Source: Pelagibacteraceae bacterium TMED259 (GTDB lineage Bacteria; Pseudomonadota; Alphaproteobacteria; HIMB59). Taken from it: DNA of 8,311 nt. Positions within the stretch are counted from its first letter, which is position 1. Every line of letters begins with the position of its first letter. Below, one piece after another: positions 188 to 8,056 of this stretch. The DNA is taken from the NCBI GenBank assembly GCA_002169365.1, contig NHLE01000021.1, positions 1 through 8,311 on the forward strand, read 5' to 3'. The notes beneath the pieces are model-generated. The model was not told the origin of the DNA and ran no database searches. It worked only from the letters and a program-made list of their open reading frames with translations. Made by a program: the position numbers and the translations under genes.

Positions 188-209
188 AAATTTGATTCGA
201 ATCAAATTT
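188..209. repeat. Perfect 22-bp palindrome over the tyrosinase stop codon
   Basis: The left arm AAATTTGATTC is followed immediately by its exact reverse complement GAATCAAATTT, with no spacer. The TGA stop of the tyrosinase gene (202-204, minus strand) lies inside the right arm. As RNA it could fold into a hairpin of about 9 bp with a 4-base loop. No separate U-tract follows on the minus strand, so it is not a textbook intrinsic terminator. A 3'-end stabilising hairpin or a protein-binding site is equally possible. Confidence 0.7.
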
Positions 210-3200
210 CTGCAAAGACAAGACTCCTCGCGGCTGCAATGGTTGATGTTCGCAGCCACCCATCAAGCGATCGGCCATGGAAGAGACCCTCATCTAAATA
301 CTGCTTGATTGCTGCAAGTGGATTATCACGATATATGGGGATAAGGTCCGGATTTGTTGCCATATAGACGCATGCAAGATCAATTGCACGATCGTAGTAC
401 GTGGATGCATCGGGAGAGTGAGTTTCTGCCCATACTTGTATGTTGGCAAGTGCCGCAGGATTCCCTATTACCGCTGGATTGGTTTGGAGGTAGGTCAGAG
501 CATCGACATCACCCCCGATAGTTCCCACAGTGATGTTCTGGTGTAGCGAGGAAGATATTTCTGAAAGAGTTGTTTGCTGACTGGCGTCACTATCGGGTGT
601 CGCAGAAAGAATCATAATGGCAAGCTGTGAATCTTCTCGGATAATGTCATGTTGAAAAGAAAACTGCTGGCTCGTCGGGAATGAAACATCAGCTGAGTAG
701 TGTGTCGTCATCGGCATTGATGTACTTGACATGGCAAGCGGATTGAAACGCGCCAGCTGAAGATTCCGCATCGCATTTACAGAATCATTATGACTCAGCA
801 GGGAGTTGTCGAGATTCATTAACCGGAACGTTTCATTAGGTCTAAAATTGCCGTCTCGATTTCCCGTTCCAGCCGTGACATCCCAGCTGTTCCAGTACTC
901 TTGAATTTTGTCAGCATTGGTTTCAAGAAAATGTTTGGATCCGATGGCAACACCAATATTCTCTGAAGACTTCATTGGCGCCTCAAGAACCATCTCAATC
1001 GCTACACGAATGTCTTCTTGGTCAGTCTCGGTACTTGTCAATTCGTTTATAAGGCCTGCAGTGAGTGGTAGTTCAAGATTCACGGCATGGAACGCGAGAT
1101 CATGAATTGTGTTTTGCTCACCGGGGATAGAACTGTCTGCATCTGGCTGGATTGTGTTCAGGGATGGTGAGAAAATTGGATTTTCGAACAAGGCAAGCGC
1201 ACTGTTTGATGTCTTTGGAAGCGGCAGGTACTTGCTATTGAGTGGTTCGACGGAGTCATAGGTGTAGTTCGGGTAATACACTGCCTGAAGAACCTTGTTC
1301 GATGTGATCGTTTCCACGCCGGATCCGAGATAATTTGCATTGTTCCAGGTTGAATATGTTTGCAGGATTGGGTCGCCATTTGCATCAGGCTCCCAGAAGG
1401 TGAAGTTCCATCCAGCAATATCGAGGACACTTTCTTGCAAATATGCAGATGTCGGAAGTGTGTTGTATTCAGTCCATAACTTATCAACGTACCCATGATG
1501 CAGATAAAATATGGAATCACGACCAGCAGTCGGTACCCAACCAATGAGAGATGGTGCGATATTTGAGGATTCACCAAAAAATGTTGTTAGGTAGTTGGAG
1601 TCATCTATGATGCTCGTGATGGCACTTGGGTCTGTAGAATACTTGTCACTAATGAAGTTGTAGACGTTTCCATAATTACCCTGTTCGATTGCATTTCTCA
1701 GAGTTTCTCCGGCATCAGATGGAATGGTGTTACTTTCCCAGAGCGTAGGGACGTTTTCAAGACGTGCGATGTCCACCATGTCAATCCAGTTTGAGATTCT
1801 TGGTAAAGCCGTGTCAGACATTCCACCGATGACATCATGAGCAACTGCGTGAGGCGAGAGTTCAGCTAGTGAGTTGAATTGAGTGAATAATGTCTGGGCT
1901 TGTTGAAGAGCGACACTCTGATTGAAGTATTGAGAGACACTGACTCCTGTTTGTGCATTGCCGGGTACAGGAACAATGCCAAGGTCGCCTTCAGGCATGT
2001 GTGTTTCACTCAGAGGTAGCCCCGCGTTTATATCGGCTCCGCGAATTTTTTCGTAGAGCGAGTTTGGGCGACCATTATGCATGGGTTCACGGAAACCTTG
2101 CGGGAGAGCACTGTTCTCAGGTGTACGGTAATCCCAATAGGGAAGCGCCCATGTTTCGACATCTGCGTCACTAAGCTCTGCAGCGAACGGAGAATTATTA
2201 TCTGTTTTTTCATTGATGAGTACTTGCCGAATAACTTTTTCAAAAGCGGCGATATACAGTCGATGCCAAGCAATAAAAACAACACTAAAATTCTGCGTGG
2301 GAATAGTAGGATCGACACCTTGGGCTTGAGCCCACAACTTGACCCAGTGATTGCAGTTGTTGAGAACAACTTTCCAGTCGCTGAAGGCTTCATCAGCTTC
2401 TGCGGTAGTCATGAATCCTTCGTCAATCATCCCTTGCTTCAGGCTGCTGAGGGTTGTCCAAAAGGTTCCATGGATGCCAGCTTGGACATCCCAGCTATAT
2501 GGGTTATCGGAAGGGAGGCCTTTCATGACATCAACGGCTATTCGGTAGAGATCAATAGCGTTTGCACCCTCTGGCGTATGCGCACCATAACGAATGAAGT
2601 CAGGATTTCCGGTTTCAAGAGAGGAGTCTTGGAAATCTTGTACTAGATCTGAGAATGTGAGTAATGATTGTGATGCGGTTGAAGAGTCGCCTTCTCCGTG
2701 CGTGTTTGACGCTGAAACGGTCAGTGTGTAATCACCTGACTGCAGATCTGCAAGCTCGATAGTCGTGCTGTCGGTTACGGTGATTTCTTGAGAAATGCCA
2801 TTATCTGTTGATACGATGTAATGAGCGGTTGGGGCAGCAGAAGCGGTCTGAGACCAAGAGACGGTAAGTTCACCATCTGCATCGGAGTATGCCTTGAGGT
2901 TCTCTACGGCACCCGGTAACAAAGCTGGATCTGGCGCTACGCTCGGACTCCCGTCATCCCAGCCAACAATTTCAAATGCTTTTTGCGTCACTCCATCTGT
3001 GGACTTTGGTAGCCAACGAATCTGGTCATCTTTTTGGATGATGCGATTTTGCAACAGTTGCAGGAGTTGTCTTGGGTTACTGGTAGTTGGCGGCGTAGAT
3101 ACATCATGCCATTGATCGGCTGCTGCGTCCCATTTCTCAACAGTTGAGCCGGCAACAACGCCAGTAATGACAAAACTCTTGGTGTCTTGTCCGACAAGTT

Positions 3201-3408
3201 CTGACTTGCCGAACACCACCGGGTCAACACCAACAAGGGATTTATCAATGTAGACTTCACAGACTGGTTCGAGCTGTGGCCTGATACCAGATGCATCTAG
3301 GGCGATACGTTGTTCCAAATGCTCTAGTGAGAGTGTCTTTGAACGCTTGTTCACACTACGATCGTTGGTGTTGGTAGAACGGTTGAAAAGAGTGTTAAGA
3401 AATCGCAT
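202..3408 (-). CDS. Tyrosinase-family binuclear copper protein with LEPR-like leader, shared module, FN3-like domain and C-terminal NPDLI-type module
   Basis: Predicted extracellular type-3 copper oxidase (phenol or catechol oxidation) of 1068 residues. The ATG follows GGCGGGG with a 5-base spacer. Residues 1-40 are a basic leader with LEHLEQRIALDA, a LEPR variant with Gln for Pro and no hydrophobic segment. Residues 52-152 are the module shared with the subtilase-like protein (DVSTPPTTSNPR at 102-113). Residues about 163-250 look like fibronectin type III (ELTVSWSQ, HYIVS, DYTLTVSASNTHGEG). The copper domain spans about 285-650. CuA has H313 (QAGIHGTFW) and H382 (FIAWHRLYIAAFE). CuB has H520 and H524 (SPHAVAHDVIGGM) and H638 (DSIFYLHHGYVDKLW). 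The second CuA His, normally nine residues before the WHR His, is N373; the only other nearby histidine is H354 in NNCNHW. YYPNYTYDSVEPLN (711-724) resembles the linker after tyrosinase cores. Residues about 970-1051 (TYLQTNPAVIG, YMATNPDLIPIYRDN, AIKQYLDEGLFHGRSLDGW) match a C-terminal module seen in secreted bacterial proteins. Copper chemistry and substrate are inferred; the family call is strong. Confidence 0.92.
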   Translation of the reverse strand: MRFLNTLFNRSTNTNDRSVNKRSKTLSLEHLEQRIALDASGIRPQLEPVCEVYIDKSLVGVDPVVFGKSELVGQDTKSFVITGVVAGSTVEKWDAAADQWHDVSTPPTTSNPRQLLQLLQNRIIQKDDQIRWLPKSTDGVTQKAFEIVGWDDGSPSVAPDPALLPGAVENLKAYSDADGELTVSWSQTASAAPTAHYIVSTDNGISQEITVTDSTTIELADLQSGDYTLTVSASNTHGEGDSSTASQSLLTFSDLVQDFQDSSLETGNPDFIRYGAHTPEGANAIDLYRIAVDVMKGLPSDNPYSWDVQAGIHGTFWTTLSSLKQGMIDEGFMTTAEADEAFSDWKVVLNNCNHWVKLWAQAQGVDPTIPTQNFSVVFIAWHRLYIAAFEKVIRQVLINEKTDNNSPFAAELSDADVETWALPYWDYRTPENSALPQGFREPMHNGRPNSLYEKIRGADINAGLPLSETHMPEGDLGIVPVPGNAQTGVSVSQYFNQSVALQQAQTLFTQFNSLAELSPHAVAHDVIGGMSDTALPRISNWIDMVDIARLENVPTLWESNTIPSDAGETLRNAIEQGNYGNVYNFISDKYSTDPSAITSIIDDSNYLTTFFGESSNIAPSLIGWVPTAGRDSIFYLHHGYVDKLWTEYNTLPTSAYLQESVLDIAGWNFTFWEPDANGDPILQTYSTWNNANYLGSGVETITSNKVLQAVYYPNYTYDSVEPLNSKYLPLPKTSNSALALFENPIFSPSLNTIQPDADSSIPGEQNTIHDLAFHAVNLELPLTAGLINELTSTETDQEDIRVAIEMVLEAPMKSSENIGVAIGSKHFLETNADKIQEYWNSWDVTAGTGNRDGNFRPNETFRLMNLDNSLLSHNDSVNAMRNLQLARFNPLAMSSTSMPMTTHYSADVSFPTSQQFSFQHDIIREDSQLAIMILSATPDSDASQQTTLSEISSSLHQNITVGTIGGDVDALTYLQTNPAVIGNPAALANIQVWAETHSPDASTYYDRAIDLACVYMATNPDLIPIYRDNPLAAIKQYLDEGLFHGRSLDGWLRTSTIAAARSLVFAEI
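2953..3255 (-). repeat. Shared module, copy 2 (N-terminus of the tyrosinase-family protein)
   Basis: Codes for residues 52-152 of the tyrosinase-family protein, directly after the LEPR-like leader and before the FN3-like domain. Landmarks are VYIDKSLVGVDPVVF, GSTVEKWDAAADQWHDVS, STPPTTSNPRQLLQLL, KDDQIRWLP and KAFEIVGWDDG. The 12 residues DVSTPPTTSNPR are identical in both copies, while the flanking positions have diverged. That pattern suggests constraint on this segment rather than a very recent duplication. Confidence 0.75.
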
Positions 3409-3603: not shown

Positions 3604-4671
3604 TTACCCGCCTTTTTCGCTAAGCGCTTCTTTCATTTCGTTCCGGGTGAGCTTTTGATCACCATTCTTGTCCCATTGGTTGAATTGTCGAAACACAAGG
3701 GAACGTGGATTATTTACTTCTTCTCGTGTGAGAGTTCCATCACGATTTAAATCAAATCGTAATAATATCTGTGGGACAATTTCTGGCCCCAATGTATTTC
3801 GTTTTATATTGATTCGTTGGTGTTCTGAGATAATTTTGTATTCATCTTGCGTTATGGTGTCATTTGACGATCGAGAAGCCTTGCGAAAAAACTCACGAGT
3901 AAACTCACGAAATTCAGGAGCAGAATCTTCAATGCGAAGGATCCCACTTCCAGTTGAATCAAGAATCTGAAATACATCAGTTGGACTTCCTTGAGGTCCT
4001 CGTATTCTTTGTGGCTGAAATGGCCTGCCTTGCGCAGCATATGTGCGAGCAATCGTGGCTTGTGAATCGGTTATAGGTTTGATGCGAGTCGGTATTCGGC
4101 CAGGTCCAGCACCCATCATCAAATTATTATTTTTTTCAAAAATAGTGTGTGGTAAACCAAGAGCGTGGCCTAACTCGTGTGCAAGCACAGCAGGTGTCTG
4201 CAGTCCTTTAGGACCCCGCGTTGCAAAATAGACAACGCCATCAGGCTTTGGGATAAAAACCCCACCAATTGTTTTTTCAAAGTCCTCCGCGAGTACAACA
4301 TTAAACCCGTTGGCAAGTAGATTCTCGCGCTTGGTGTTGGCAATCAGAGCGGGTGCTATCTTTTCACGATGCTGGGAAAGAGCGAGAGCAAACGCTTCGG
4401 GCACCTGTGGTGTCATGTTCTGGATCGATTCAATGTCCCAGATGATTGAAGCCTGTTTCCATGTTTCATTTACTGCTTTCATTTGCTCTCGTATGTCGTC
4501 ATCACTCATCGAACAGTTGAGTCGGGGTTCGGTTGCAGTGCGAAAGCGATGAATACGAACAGGAAGAGTAATGGATTCATTATCAGCAGAGGCTGAGATG
4601 AGTTCCCGTGCCTGCAAAAATAACACTGCCAAACAGATCAAAAGGGAAGATAAAGAAAACGGAGTTGCCAT
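3604..4671 (-). CDS. Secreted metzincin-type zinc metalloprotease with C-terminal EF-hand loops
   Basis: Predicted extracellular zinc endopeptidase of 355 residues, substrate unknown. It starts at an ATG with a weak CAGG about 8 bases upstream. A hydrophobic stretch (6-19) followed by SASA|DNES suggests a Sec signal peptide cleaved after A29, although the n-region lacks Lys and Arg. Residues 50-80 (DDDIREQMKAVNETWKQA, IIWDI) match the usual N-terminal part of matrixin-like domains. The zinc motif HELGHALGLPH gives ligands H165, H169 and H175 with catalytic E166. NNLMMG (182-187) is a plausible Met-turn. The C-terminal third holds two canonical EF-hand loops, DLNRDGTLTREE (307-318) and DKNGDQKLTRNE (334-345). 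It also holds two degenerate ones, DSTGSGILRIED (238-249) and a loop ending at E277 that lacks the first Asp. This suggests calcium-dependent folding or regulation. The gene sits about 104 bases after the subtilase-like gene and about 195 bases before the tyrosinase gene, all on one strand. The metzincin call is strong; assignment to M10 or another subfamily is not secure. Confidence 0.9.
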   Translation of the reverse strand: MATPFSLSSLLICLAVLFLQARELISASADNESITLPVRIHRFRTATEPRLNCSMSDDDIREQMKAVNETWKQASIIWDIESIQNMTPQVPEAFALALSQHREKIAPALIANTKRENLLANGFNVVLAEDFEKTIGGVFIPKPDGVVYFATRGPKGLQTPAVLAHELGHALGLPHTIFEKNNNLMMGAGPGRIPTRIKPITDSQATIARTYAAQGRPFQPQRIRGPQGSPTDVFQILDSTGSGILRIEDSAPEFREFTREFFRKASRSSNDTITQDEYKIISEHQRINIKRNTLGPEIVPQILLRFDLNRDGTLTREEVNNPRSLVFRQFNQWDKNGDQKLTRNEMKEALSEKGG

Positions 4672-4775
4672 CGTGAAGACCTGAAAGATCAGAACTATGT
4701 ATGTGAAGTTTTTGTGTTATTTCGATGAAAGAGGAATTCAATCGATCTACTAACAAATTGATTTCAAACCGGTGT

Positions 4776-7700
4776 TTACTGCATCTCAAAGCGAATAGAG
4801 CTTTTTGATTCGGATACTAATTTGCCATTCCATCCAACGAGTGAGAATGCTTCTTCTGCTTGTGGTGATTCGGCTGGCGGTATCCACCGCAGTTCATCAT
4901 CTGGCTTAACTACTCTTAATGAAAGTAATCGAAGTAATTCACGTGGATTACTGGTTGTTGGAGGCGTAGAGACATCAACCCATGTATCTCCAGACTTCTT
5001 TTCAACGGTTCCACGTACAGAATCGACGACGAATCGAATGCCAGATACTGATGGAAGCAGTGACGTAGCAAGATTATTCCATGAAAATACAAATGGGTTT
5101 GGCCCCGGAACGCTGTTATCAACAATGATTTTTGTCGAGGGAAGCAGTTCTGGTCGTTCAACACGAGGTAGAGAAATTCCAATGTTGACAGTTGGTTTGA
5201 GATTTCTTCTTCCGATTGCAGTTTTATTATTGGTTGTTATGAATTGGTTATCAGGTAGTTCAACCATTGGGGTATATGCACCGACGGCTGATGAAAATGA
5301 AAGATGTGAACCAGGAAATTCATATGTTCCTTGAGCATCAGTCACAACCTGAGGCTCTTCTGTTGTGAGTGTTAAGGACCAGTTGTCGAGCATATAACTA
5401 TGGTTTGGATCAGCATTCATGACCTCGAGAGACCAGGATCCATTGGCCGGGGTGTGCTTAAACGCCGCAAGGTTTGCCAATGACATATGGTCAGCTGAAG
5501 AGGTTTCCATCAAGATGGTTTGACTACTTCCAAACACGGTTGTTGAATCTTGATGGGAAAAGTTGCCCGGACTATTAAATGCTTGTCCTACGAGCTTTGT
5601 ACCAGTGATCGGCACCCGGATGCCAAGCGGGCTTATGAGTGTCAGAAAGACTCGGTCTTGTCCTGACGGATCGCCGCCTTGGGGTGCATGTATGGTGTAG
5701 CTCAGTTCCAAATCTGTAATTGTGCCAGCCATGTTCGCAAATGTAATGACGGACCCAGCCTTTGCTGGCCAAATCAGCTCGTTTTCATACGTTATGTTTT
5801 CGGGAGTAAAGTACCGAGCAGCCGAATGAATGGTGAGTGGCTGAACATTTGGTTCTGTCAAAGTTTGCTCGGATTCACGAATGCCGTTGCCGTTACTATC
5901 AAGAAAGACAGGCATGCCCTCAAGAGGTCGGTCACCCTGGTCTTGGATTCCATTCCTGCCAAAGTCTTCAAAGACCTTCCCTTGTATGGAAATGTCTGCA
6001 ATACGGGCAGCTGCCTCCTTGGCCCGAATGAGCCCTACACCAGTCGGATAGTTGAAATGTTCAGGGTCACCAACTGGCGGAAGCGTTGGCGGATCTATTG
6101 TTGGCTGATCATCTCTATCAATCGGCAGTGGCAATGCAGAGGCGGCAAGGTGCTCGTAGATTTCTGCAGGAGTCAGTTTCTCATTGAGCTCAAGCAGTAG
6201 TGCAGCAACAGCTCCAACATTGGGTGTCGCAGCAGACGTACCCGAGAAGTTTTTTAATGTATCCTTATCTGGGTCACCAGACCCAAAAAAACTTGTGTCG
6301 CCGTTCTGGGGTGCGATGAACCGTGGTTGTGGCCGATATTCAGGTTCCTGCCTTTGGCCATCGGAATCGAAAAAAATTGGTGTCCCACCAAAGGAACTGA
6401 AGTCAGACAGCACAGATTCCCAATCCGAAGAATTCGCCTGATACGCAGGGGTACTCCAGTATTGTGCTGCCCCAACGTTTGCAGCAAGTTTCGAATTATT
6501 ATGTCCCCATACTGTGCTGGACCCATGCTCTGCATATTCAATGAAACTGGTTTGAGGAAAATCTTCTCCAACTGGAGGCTGGCTGCCGTCAAATACCGTA
6601 ATCCACTTAAAAAATGTGGGCAATTCTTGACCCCCACCACCATCATAGCCATGAGTGTTATGAACAAACGCTACATAAAAAGTATTTGGAAGTGCTTCTA
6701 AGACTTGCGTTCCGCCTTGCTGCATTCCACTTAGAGGATAGAGAGACATTGGATAGTCGGGATCGCCGATAGCTTTCCCGAAGTACACTCGTTCTCCATT
6801 TTCTTCAGTAAAGAACCAAACCTCATTTGCACTGTTGTTGTGTTTTGCACTGTTGTTGTGTTTCCAAGGTTGATCCCACTGCACAAAAAAGTTGTTTTTA
6901 TTAAATGCGCCTGGAAAATACACCTCCTGCATAATATCAATGTTTTCTGCATCAGGATCAAAGTCATGATAAAGATACTGCTCTGTATTACCTGGAACTG
7001 ATGATGGAAGTTGAGAGCTGATTTCCGGGTAGGGTGTGCCACGAAAAGTCGATTGGTAACTTGTATTAGTATCATTTCCAGCGGCGCTGAAATACGCTAC
7101 CGCTTTGTTTCCGTCTTTTCCTTCAACAGCCCAGTCAACAGCCTGAGCGATAATACCGTCCTGGAACCATGGCACAATGGGGTCGTATAAGTCGTCGACG
7201 ATGATATTTACTTTGATATCGTCGACCAATTTCTTGATTACGCTGACGTATCTTTCTGCCCACTCGTTTGCATGATCTATCGCCATACTTGGACTTGTCG
7301 GATCACCAAAATCTGTTACAGGATTAGGAGTGGCAAAGTAGATCTCTGCATCGGGGGCAATCGCATGGACCAACTGTGCCATCCCGCGTCCCTCGTCATC
7401 TTTATAATCTACGTCGTTACAAATATATGAATAGCCTCTGCTATCCGTCCCCTTCATGTCAGGAAGTACACCGAGCGCAATGTCCTCATCCATGCCACCT
7501 AACGCATTAAAGCTGGTGGAGATAACTCCAATCTTCATGCCTTTTCCAGTTACCCCATAACGCGCTCTCACAACATCAGCGAGCATGGCGACGTCAGCCT
7601 GATTCAGGTTACTACTCGAATAGCCGCTCCCAATGACATGAGGAGCAGCACGTCCTTGTTGTTGATACGCATTTTTCAAGGTATCGTACGTAACATGCCA

Positions 7701-7862
7701 GCTTTCACCTTCCGCCTGCTCAAGGCCGTTGGCTGACAGGTAGTGTCGTGGTTCAAGTCGTTCTGACGACAACACAAACTCAGGCCGGCTTTGTCTGCGT
7801 GATGGACGGGGATACTTTGTACGCTTGTGCACAGAACGGAATATAGAAGAAAATAGATTCAT
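4776..7862 (-). CDS. LEPR-leader subtilase-fold (S8/S53-like) protein with P domain, SdrD_B-like domain and C-terminal shared module
   Basis: Secreted or surface peptidase-like protein, 1028 residues from the ATG at 7862. A TTG directly before it is a less likely start, and a weak GGA lies about 8 bases upstream of the ATG. Residues 1-45 form a basic leader ending SERLEPRHYLSA, the planctomycete LEPR motif, without a hydrophobic signal peptide. The peptidase domain spans about 105-620. It contains KIGVISTSFNALGG (110-123), DDEGRGMAQLVHAIAP (155-170), VDDLYDPIVPWFQDGIIAQ, the oxyanion segment SAAGND (N263) and FSGTSAATP with the serine nucleophile S543. The family usually shows VISDSF, but here T116 replaces the Asp, and the His motif HGTHVAG is replaced by DEGRGM. 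Activity is therefore uncertain. Between N263 and S543 lies a beta-rich insert (about 280-430) resembling a PPC or jelly-roll domain. Residues 625-871 form an SdrD_B-like domain (GKVFEDFGRNGIQDQ, LDSNGNGI, later DAQGTYEF) interrupted by a P/Homo B-like domain at about 699-835 (LTLISPLG, NGSWSLEV, LDNWSLTL). Residues 911-1012 are a module also found in the tyrosinase gene downstream. Confidence 0.88.
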   Translation of the reverse strand: MNLFSSIFRSVHKRTKYPRPSRRQSRPEFVLSSERLEPRHYLSANGLEQAEGESWHVTYDTLKNAYQQQGRAAPHVIGSGYSSSNLNQADVAMLADVVRARYGVTGKGMKIGVISTSFNALGGMDEDIALGVLPDMKGTDSRGYSYICNDVDYKDDEGRGMAQLVHAIAPDAEIYFATPNPVTDFGDPTSPSMAIDHANEWAERYVSVIKKLVDDIKVNIIVDDLYDPIVPWFQDGIIAQAVDWAVEGKDGNKAVAYFSAAGNDTNTSYQSTFRGTPYPEISSQLPSSVPGNTEQYLYHDFDPDAENIDIMQEVYFPGAFNKNNFFVQWDQPWKHNNSAKHNNSANEVWFFTEENGERVYFGKAIGDPDYPMSLYPLSGMQQGGTQVLEALPNTFYVAFVHNTHGYDGGGGQELPTFFKWITVFDGSQPPVGEDFPQTSFIEYAEHGSSTVWGHNNSKLAANVGAAQYWSTPAYQANSSDWESVLSDFSSFGGTPIFFDSDGQRQEPEYRPQPRFIAPQNGDTSFFGSGDPDKDTLKNFSGTSAATPNVGAVAALLLELNEKLTPAEIYEHLAASALPLPIDRDDQPTIDPPTLPPVGDPEHFNYPTGVGLIRAKEAAARIADISIQGKVFEDFGRNGIQDQGDRPLEGMPVFLDSNGNGIRESEQTLTEPNVQPLTIHSAARYFTPENITYENELIWPAKAGSVITFANMAGTITDLELSYTIHAPQGGDPSGQDRVFLTLISPLGIRVPITGTKLVGQAFNSPGNFSHQDSTTVFGSSQTILMETSSADHMSLANLAAFKHTPANGSWSLEVMNADPNHSYMLDNWSLTLTTEEPQVVTDAQGTYEFPGSHLSFSSAVGAYTPMVELPDNQFITTNNKTAIGRRNLKPTVNIGISLPRVERPELLPSTKIIVDNSVPGPNPFVFSWNNLATSLLPSVSGIRFVVDSVRGTVEKKSGDTWVDVSTPPTTSNPRELLRLLSLRVVKPDDELRWIPPAESPQAEEAFSLVGWNGKLVSESKSSIRFEMQ
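4827..5132 (-). repeat. Shared module, copy 1 (C-terminus of the subtilase-like protein)
   Basis: Codes for residues 911-1012 of the subtilase-like protein. Landmarks are IIVDNSVPGPNPFVF, GTVEKKSGDTWVDVS, STPPTTSNPRELLRLL, KPDDELRWIPP and EEAFSLVGWNG. It aligns along its whole length with residues 52-152 of the tyrosinase-family protein, with only small gaps. The pattern (G-x-x-E-x-W, a W-x-D-V-S strand, an I-x-x-x-D-x-x-R-W-x-P strand, then A-F-x-x-x-G-W-D/N-G) is reminiscent of CSPG or cadherin-like extracellular beta repeats, but I do not recognise a named family. Confidence 0.75.
6826..6861. repeat. Exact 18-bp tandem duplication inside the subtilase-like gene
   Basis: Two adjacent identical copies of TTTGCACTGTTGTTGTGT (plus strand), at 6826-6843 and 6844-6861. 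In the protein this produces KHNNSAKHNNSA at residues 334-345, in the insert between the oxyanion Asn and the nucleophilic Ser. The copies are identical and in frame, as expected for replication slippage. Confidence 0.85.
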
Positions 7863-8056
7863 CAAAAAATTCCAAAAAAGTTTTTAACCACCCACCAACA
7901 GCTACCCGATTTAAGCATGACTTCTAAATAAGACGGCTGCAATCTTTTGTTGTCTCAATTCTCTTTGTGAGGGAACAACGCGGGTGAATATGCGGGCTTT
8001 AACCGTTTTACAGACCTTGCTGTGCACTTTTAGAAGCGTATTGAGCAGCGTTGTCA

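What the first reader, a model, noticed from the sequence alone, without database searches (positions are those of the whole stretch)
2263..2349. Tyrosinase-like protein has Asn where the second CuA histidine is expected
The CuA helix reads N-FSVV-FIAWHRLYIAAFE. In the PROSITE tyrosinase CuA pattern (H-x(4,5)-F-x-x-[FW]-H-R) and in plant polyphenol oxidases (HFSWIFFPFHRWYL) the position nine residues before the WHR/FHR histidine is a copper ligand. Here it is N373, codon AAT, one base from the His codon CAT. The distance from the first CuA His (H313) to this position is 60 residues, much longer than the 21 or so in plant enzymes, so there is an insertion. It contains H354 in a C-x-H context (NNCNHW), which might replace the missing ligand. 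The CuB ligands (H520, H524, H638) are all present. Either the copper site is rearranged or the enzyme has lost normal type-3 chemistry.
Basis: partly seen in the sequence, partly recalled or inferred. Interest (0 to 1): 0.72.

Follow-up and report, generated by a model that had tools for sequence, protein, structure and literature searches.

The report
Tyrosinase with a displaced copper-binding histidine
A planctomycete copper enzyme that seems to lack a copper-holding histidine very probably still has it, earlier in the chain, pushed away by an extra loop that a whole family of related bacterial tyrosinases shares.

Summary
In detail: N373 (AAT, window 2290-2292, minus strand) lies nine residues before HisA3 (H382), where textbook tyrosinases carry HisA2. 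It is no error: relatives in three planctomycete MAGs also have Asn, and His occurs there in 0 of 52 family rows. But no ligand seems lost. Of the protein's 23 histidines, seven are invariant in non-gap rows of 53: H313, H354, H382, H520, H524, H637, H638, i.e. six copper ligands plus the conserved 'seventh' histidine. H354 sits in an invariant C-x-H, which MAFFT and hhalign put on the C-x-H HisA2 of relatives with normal X8 spacing. N373 precedes the predicted HisA3 helix and looks like a helix cap. Best reading: an intact C-x-H type-3 copper oxidase with an enlarged CuA loop. Copper binding, thioether and activity are inferred. New variant of a known kind.

The parts
202..3408 (-). Tyrosinase-family gene, 1068 aa: N-terminal LEPRxLL-like motif (name recalled), ~110-aa shared domain, fn3, tyrosinase core, C-terminal region
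2956..3282 (-). Residues 43-151: ~110-aa domain also found in the window's subtilase
   Evidence: BLASTP 42% over 114 columns; three matches in each of 3 planctomycete genomes
2668..2910 (-). fn3 domain, residues 167-247
   Evidence: Pfam 26.8 bits, cut-off 25
1174..2661 (-). Tyrosinase core as modelled, residues 250-745
2470..2472 (-). HisA1, H313
   Evidence: 51 of 51 non-gap family rows
2353..2355 (-). C352, candidate thioether partner of HisA2
   Evidence: 52 of 52 non-gap family rows
2347..2349 (-). HisA2, H354 (C-x-H)
   Evidence: 52 of 52 non-gap family rows; aligned with HisA2 of X8 relatives
2293..2346 (-). Enlarged HisA2-HisA3 loop, residues 355-372
   Evidence: X27 in the window, X18-X32 in the family
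2290..2292 (-). N373 (AAT), residue at -9 from HisA3; predicted helix cap
   Evidence: His in 0 of 52 family rows; helix starts at residue 374 in the model
2263..2265 (-). HisA3, H382 (FIAWHRLY)
   Evidence: 52 of 52 non-gap family rows
1861..1863 (-). Water-keeper Glu, E516 (HisB1-4)
   Evidence: 53 of 53 family rows; position as in vsTyr E254/H258 (PMC10526336, passages)
1849..1851 (-). HisB1, H520
   Evidence: 53 of 53
1837..1839 (-). HisB2, H524
   Evidence: 53 of 53
1495..1500 (-). H637 (seventh His) and HisB3, H638
   Evidence: 53 of 53 each
529..1176 (-). Residues 745-960, possible lid-like C-terminal domain
   Evidence: full-length model aligns to 8b74 and latent aurone synthase out to residues 955-960

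Best explanation
The gene encodes a probably secreted, multidomain type-3 copper oxidase of the tyrosinase/catechol oxidase superfamily with a complete six-histidine dicopper site. CuA is held by H313 (HisA1), H354 (HisA2, in the C-x-H motif with C352) and H382 (HisA3); CuB by H520, H524 and H638. A loop insertion between HisA2 and HisA3 stretches the usual X8 to X27, so a reader who counts back nine residues from HisA3 lands on N373. N373 is only the cap before the HisA3 helix. Shown: the sequence, the conservation, the alignment of H354 with HisA2 of X8 relatives, the clade-wide long spacing, and the tyrosinase fold of the model. Inferred: secretion, copper loading, the C352-H354 thioether, oxidation of phenols or catechols to quinones, and latency by the C-terminal region. 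The loop's job is unknown; my guess is shaping the entrance over CuA or anchoring a partner or lid.
Against: No coordinates were returned, so no His-to-His distance was measured. Model confidence is low (10-residue means 65-72) from residue 340 to 379, which holds H354 and the loop; in the full-length model it was 56-71 over residues 341-380. [quoted passage not shown] My paper searches listed no assay of a clade member. The 18 locus rows were picked by their C-x-H, so its 48 of 48 is partly selection; the 52 of 52 is not, though that family was found by similarity to the window.
Confidence: 0.86

Rival explanations
1. CuA has truly lost a ligand. N373 sits where HisA2 was, and the protein is a degenerate, one-copper or non-catalytic member.
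For: Asn at -9 from HisA3 in the window and its close relatives. Replacing copper-ligating histidines by Asn in AoMelO abolished activity (PMC11608171 passage).
Against: H354 and C352 are invariant while position 373 drifts among Ala, Asn, Gly, Asp, Ser, Thr. All other ligands, the seventh His and the water-keeper Glu are kept, which a decaying enzyme would not need.
Confidence: 0.05
2. CuA has been rebuilt like the two CuB-type sites of insect phenoloxidases and PvdP, with all ligands on helices.
For: H354 falls at the start of a short predicted helix, residues 353-362. The HisA2-HisA3 distance of 28 is close to that in arthropod proteins (recalled). Insect PPOs and PaPvdP have two CuB sites (PMC11608171 passages).
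Against: There is no H-X3-H in the CuA part: H313 and H354 are 41 apart and no other His lies between them. The listed matches of the core model are plant, fungal, bacterial and molluscan enzymes, and H354 aligns with loop HisA2. The short helix has low confidence.
Confidence: 0.05
3. N373 is itself a copper ligand through its side-chain oxygen, in place of or beside H354.
For: Asn at 373 in most rows near the window; Asn can ligate copper in rare cases (CuZ, PMC11608171 passage).
Against: Ala is the commonest residue at 373 in the family, 21 of 52, and Ala cannot ligate.
Confidence: 0.02
4. Sequencing or assembly error at base 2292.
For: AAT is one base from CAT.
Against: The same Asn in L001-L003 from three MAGs and in 16 of 52 family rows, with His in none.
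Confidence: 0.01

Closest known systems
Verrucomicrobium spinosum tyrosinase vsTyr (PDB 8bbq)
   Different: HisA2-HisA3 is X8 (H86, H95) against X27 here; no fn3 or shared N-terminal domain known to me
Hahella HcTyr1 (PDB 8b74)
   Same: First row by Z, 25.7 for the core (rows within 1 count as tied); with the full-length model the match runs on to residue 955; C-x-H (Cys76, His78; passage)
   Different: No thioether seen in its crystal; its HisA3 was not in the passage I saw, but the model of its sister HcTyr2 has X8 (His84, His93)
Fungal tyrosinases and molluscan haemocyanins with a Cys-His link at HisA2
   Same: Fungal enzymes share the vsTyr position of the cysteine; A. oryzae C92A and H103F mutants and haemocyanins are among the structural matches
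   Different: X8 spacing (HisA2 = H94 in A. oryzae and C-x-H in molluscs are recalled)
[quoted passage not shown] 2013 (PMC3658974)
   Different: Cytosolic by that paper, which found only the alpha subclass in the bacteria it examined; the exact position is in a figure I could not see

Membership tests
Tyrosinase / type-3 copper superfamily (PF00264) | Profile match above curated cut-off | tested here: met
   64.2 bits against 22.6
Tyrosinase / type-3 copper superfamily (PF00264) | Six copper-ligating histidines | tested here: met
   H313, H354, H382, H520, H524, H638 invariant in non-gap rows of 53; by conservation and alignment, not by structure
Tyrosinase / type-3 copper superfamily (PF00264) | CuB motif H-X3-H-Xn-H | tested here: met
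   H520, H524, H638
Tyrosinase / type-3 copper superfamily (PF00264) | Fold of the central domain | tested here: met
Tyrosinase / type-3 copper superfamily (PF00264) | Binds two coppers and oxidises phenols or catechols | not testable with these tools
   needs protein
Canonical alpha/gamma CuA enzymes | CuA spacing H-Xn-H-X8-H | tested here: not met
   X27 in the window, X18-X32 in the clade; motif from PMC11608171 and PMC3658974
C-x-H thioether-type polyphenol oxidases | Cys two residues before HisA2 | tested here: met
   C352 in 52 of 52 non-gap rows
C-x-H thioether-type polyphenol oxidases | Covalent Cys-His thioether | not testable with these tools
   needs mass spectrometry or a structure; absent in the HcTyr1 crystal despite C-x-H
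Insect-type PPO / PvdP with two CuB sites | H-X3-H in the CuA part | tested here: not met
   no such pair; H313 and H354 are 41 apart
MelC2 tyrosinase (NF047834) | Equivalog score | tested here: not met
   23.3 bits against 450

The most novel reading that the evidence does not exclude
The enlarged HisA2-HisA3 loop is a working part: in this clade it builds a new wall or gate over CuA, or a docking site, that steers the enzyme to unusual substrates (for example surface-bound or polymeric phenols) or controls copper loading. The clade would then be a separate functional subclass of type-3 copper oxidases rather than a tyrosinase with a harmless loop.
Probability: 0.2. Interest if true: 0.6.

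Novelty: new variant of a known kind. Interest (0 to 1): 0.42.

Why it matters
H-Xn-H-X8-H is given as the CuA signature in reviews (PMC11608171) and underlies the PROSITE pattern (recalled). This clade and the X11-X13 clade show that the distance between HisA2 and HisA3 can grow, as one would expect of a ligand on a loop. Counting back nine residues from HisA3 would call such enzymes dead: 9 of 37 readable genes in my four-phylum sample lack His there, and 6 of those 9 keep a C-x-H further upstream. It also gives a natural series of loop lengths on which the role of the HisA2 loop and its possible thioether in copper loading and substrate choice could be tested.

Tried and rejected
Viral origin: a scan of viral contigs with A1 found no relative. 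Plasmid copy: no megablast match in the plasmid collection. Own-genome search: no genome is held for the window. A conserved protease-tyrosinase gene cluster, with the neighbouring subtilase and metalloprotease activating a latent tyrosinase: in the genome of L003 the nearest genes on both sides are sulfatases, and the 807-aa frame after the gene in L001 has no Pfam match, so the idea stays a guess. The full-length model had low confidence over residues 320-375, so the core was modelled again. Neither model gave coordinates, so distances between ligands were not obtained. The profile search of the PDB with A2 printed haemocyanin alignments that start near HisA3, so it did not help to place H354. 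Paper searches listed no description of this clade or of an X18-X32 CuA; the library is open-access only, I saw listings and passages of few papers (one section of PMC3658974), and figures are not held. Rows dropped: the 53-row family count uses P0001-P0049 and leaves out the near-identical fragments P0050 and P0051, and L004. A3 holds 49 of 62 P proteins; left out were P0002, P0003, P0030, P0032, P0037, P0042, P0044 (relatives of rows kept), P0009, P0050, P0051, P0061 (no CuA motif found) and P0059, P0062 (no C-x-H; P0059 has Leu and P0062 His at -9). One search used 29 of 62 P proteins and 18 loci picked by C-x-H. Of 58 P proteins with a readable CuA, 56 have C-x-H upstream. Census genes that could not be read: L026, L079, L084, L096, L097 (5 of 42). 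The treekit output warns of long branches meeting; no AU test was run.

Full report
What is there. The window is coded mostly on the minus strand: a subtilase (4776-7865), a small matrixin-like protein with EF hands (3604-4671; its matrixin score, 23.9, is just under the cut-off of 24) and a 1068-aa tyrosinase-family protein (202-3408). The tyrosinase carries an N-terminal LEPRxLL-like motif (LEHLEQRIALDA; name recalled), a ~110-aa domain also present in the subtilase, an fn3 domain, the PF00264 core and a long C-terminal part. The nearest named genomes are planctomycete MAGs (L001-L003). That the clade is marine is my reading of names such as Synechococcus and of the MAG titles; most of its rows come from unnamed contigs.

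The observation. N373 (AAT, 2290-2292) is nine residues before H382 of FIAWHRLY. Reviews give the CuA motif as H-Xn-H-X8-H (PMC11608171, passages; PMC3658974, section 5 read), so HisA2 is expected at 373. The Asn is not an error: L001, L002 and L003 from three MAGs keep it, and His is found at this column in 0 of 52 family rows with a residue.

Where HisA2 went. Over 53 family rows (window, L001-L003, P0001-P0049) I tabulated all 23 histidines of the window protein. Seven are invariant in the non-gap rows: 313, 354, 382, 520, 524, 637, 638; the other 16 vary. That is the six ligands plus the 'seventh histidine' described for these enzymes. C352 is equally fixed, 52 of 52. H354 therefore takes the HisA2 role. 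Alignment agrees. In A3 (50 rows, including X7, X11, X13 and X20 relatives and four X8 enzymes) C352 and H354 are invariant columns. hhalign of the family profile against P0056, which has a normal C-A-H-X8-H, pairs NNCNH with AQCAH and opens the gap right after H354. In the solved vsTyr the CuA ligands are H80, H86, H95 with C84 bound to H86, the same C-x-H followed by X8 (PMC10526336, passages).

How unusual. HisA2-HisA3 spacing in the family is X27-X32, with X18 in four rows (P0017-P0020). A tree without the insert columns puts the 28 sampled rows with X18-X32 in one clade, 100/100; four genes with X13 from the Bacteroidota sample and P0052 (unnamed) with X11 form another, 100/100. P0053 (X20), P0055 (X13) and P0054 (X7) sit elsewhere, the first two on long branches whose place is unsure, so a long spacing alone does not define the clade. 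A first, quick tree gave the same clade for 42 rows at SH-aLRT 96. To see how common departures are I tried to read CuA in all 42 genes matched by PF00264 in samples of 294, 244, 247 and 100 genomes of four phyla (read): 37 were readable, 28 with His at -9 and 9 without (L014 X27, L016 X29, L080-L083 X13, and L024, L060, L062, which lack C-x-H and whose HisA2 I did not settle). Leaving out the four genomes that served as search centres because they held a match, it is 26 with and 5 without, of 31. So X8 is the rule, but not universal. The window's clade is rare: 3 of 72 genomes in the planctomycete family of G003, the three being those already found. In the Synechococcus family 36 of 201 genomes matched P0031, but the listed matches outside G004 (the search centre), G430 and G564 cover only its C-terminal part, from residue 646 on; G004 and G430 (two genes, L054 and L055) have the long loop, G564 has a canonical X8 gene, L056.

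Mechanism. HisA2 is the only ligand on a loop (PMC11608171), so residues can be added after it without disturbing the helix bundle that carries the other five (inference). I infer a normal type-3 site: two coppers bind O2 and oxidise phenols or catechols to quinones, with a likely C352-H354 thioether. E516 keeps the water-keeper place (53 of 53; 43 of 48 in the wider set). HisB1+1 is Ala in the window and in 19 of 53 rows, Asn in 33; Ala does occur in active tyrosinases such as MdPPO1 (PMC11608171 passage), so substrate class cannot be told. Against a certain thioether stands HcTyr1, whose C-x-H showed no bridge in the crystal (PMC11609597, passage).

Verdict. It is a clade-wide variant of a known enzyme kind: CuA with HisA2 displaced in sequence. 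The nearest precedent I saw in print is the beta subclass, said to have its second CuA histidine elsewhere; that paper found only the alpha subclass in the bacteria it examined.

Noticed in passing
window 2956-3282 (-) and the C-terminus of 4776-7865 (-): A ~110-aa domain (DVSTPPTTSNPRxLLxLL...RWxP) is shared by the tyrosinase (residues 43-151) and the subtilase (904-1013), 42% identical; each of 3 planctomycete genomes has three matches, one being the tyrosinase; in L101 another is followed by fn3 and pentapeptide repeats (PF00805). Pfam gave it no name in the tyrosinase.
   Followed up: partly
window 3604-7865 (-): A subtilase and a matrixin-like EF-hand protein lie just upstream of the tyrosinase on the same strand; they could process a latent tyrosinase, but this neighbourhood is not kept in the genome of L003.
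   Followed up: partly
L058 7034-15418: In a planctomycete relative the tyrosinase (8547-11783, -) is flanked by sulfatases (PF00884) on both sides, with a third beyond, as in regions that break down sulfated polysaccharides.
   Followed up: partly
L080-L083: Bacteroidota-sample tyrosinases with DCTH-X13-H form, with P0052, a second clade with a lengthened CuA loop.
   Followed up: partly
L060, L062, L024: Tyrosinase-family genes without His at -9 and without C-x-H; upstream histidines suggest longer spacing, but HisA2 is unsettled.
   Followed up: no
L057, 756-aa frame at 1051 (+): A planctomycete-sample protein whose CuB end matches PF00264 but with HHEHWH-type histidines upstream, perhaps an insect/PvdP-like CuA.
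   Followed up: no
L054, L055: One Synechococcus-family genome (G430) carries two long-loop tyrosinases, X31 and X32.
   Followed up: no
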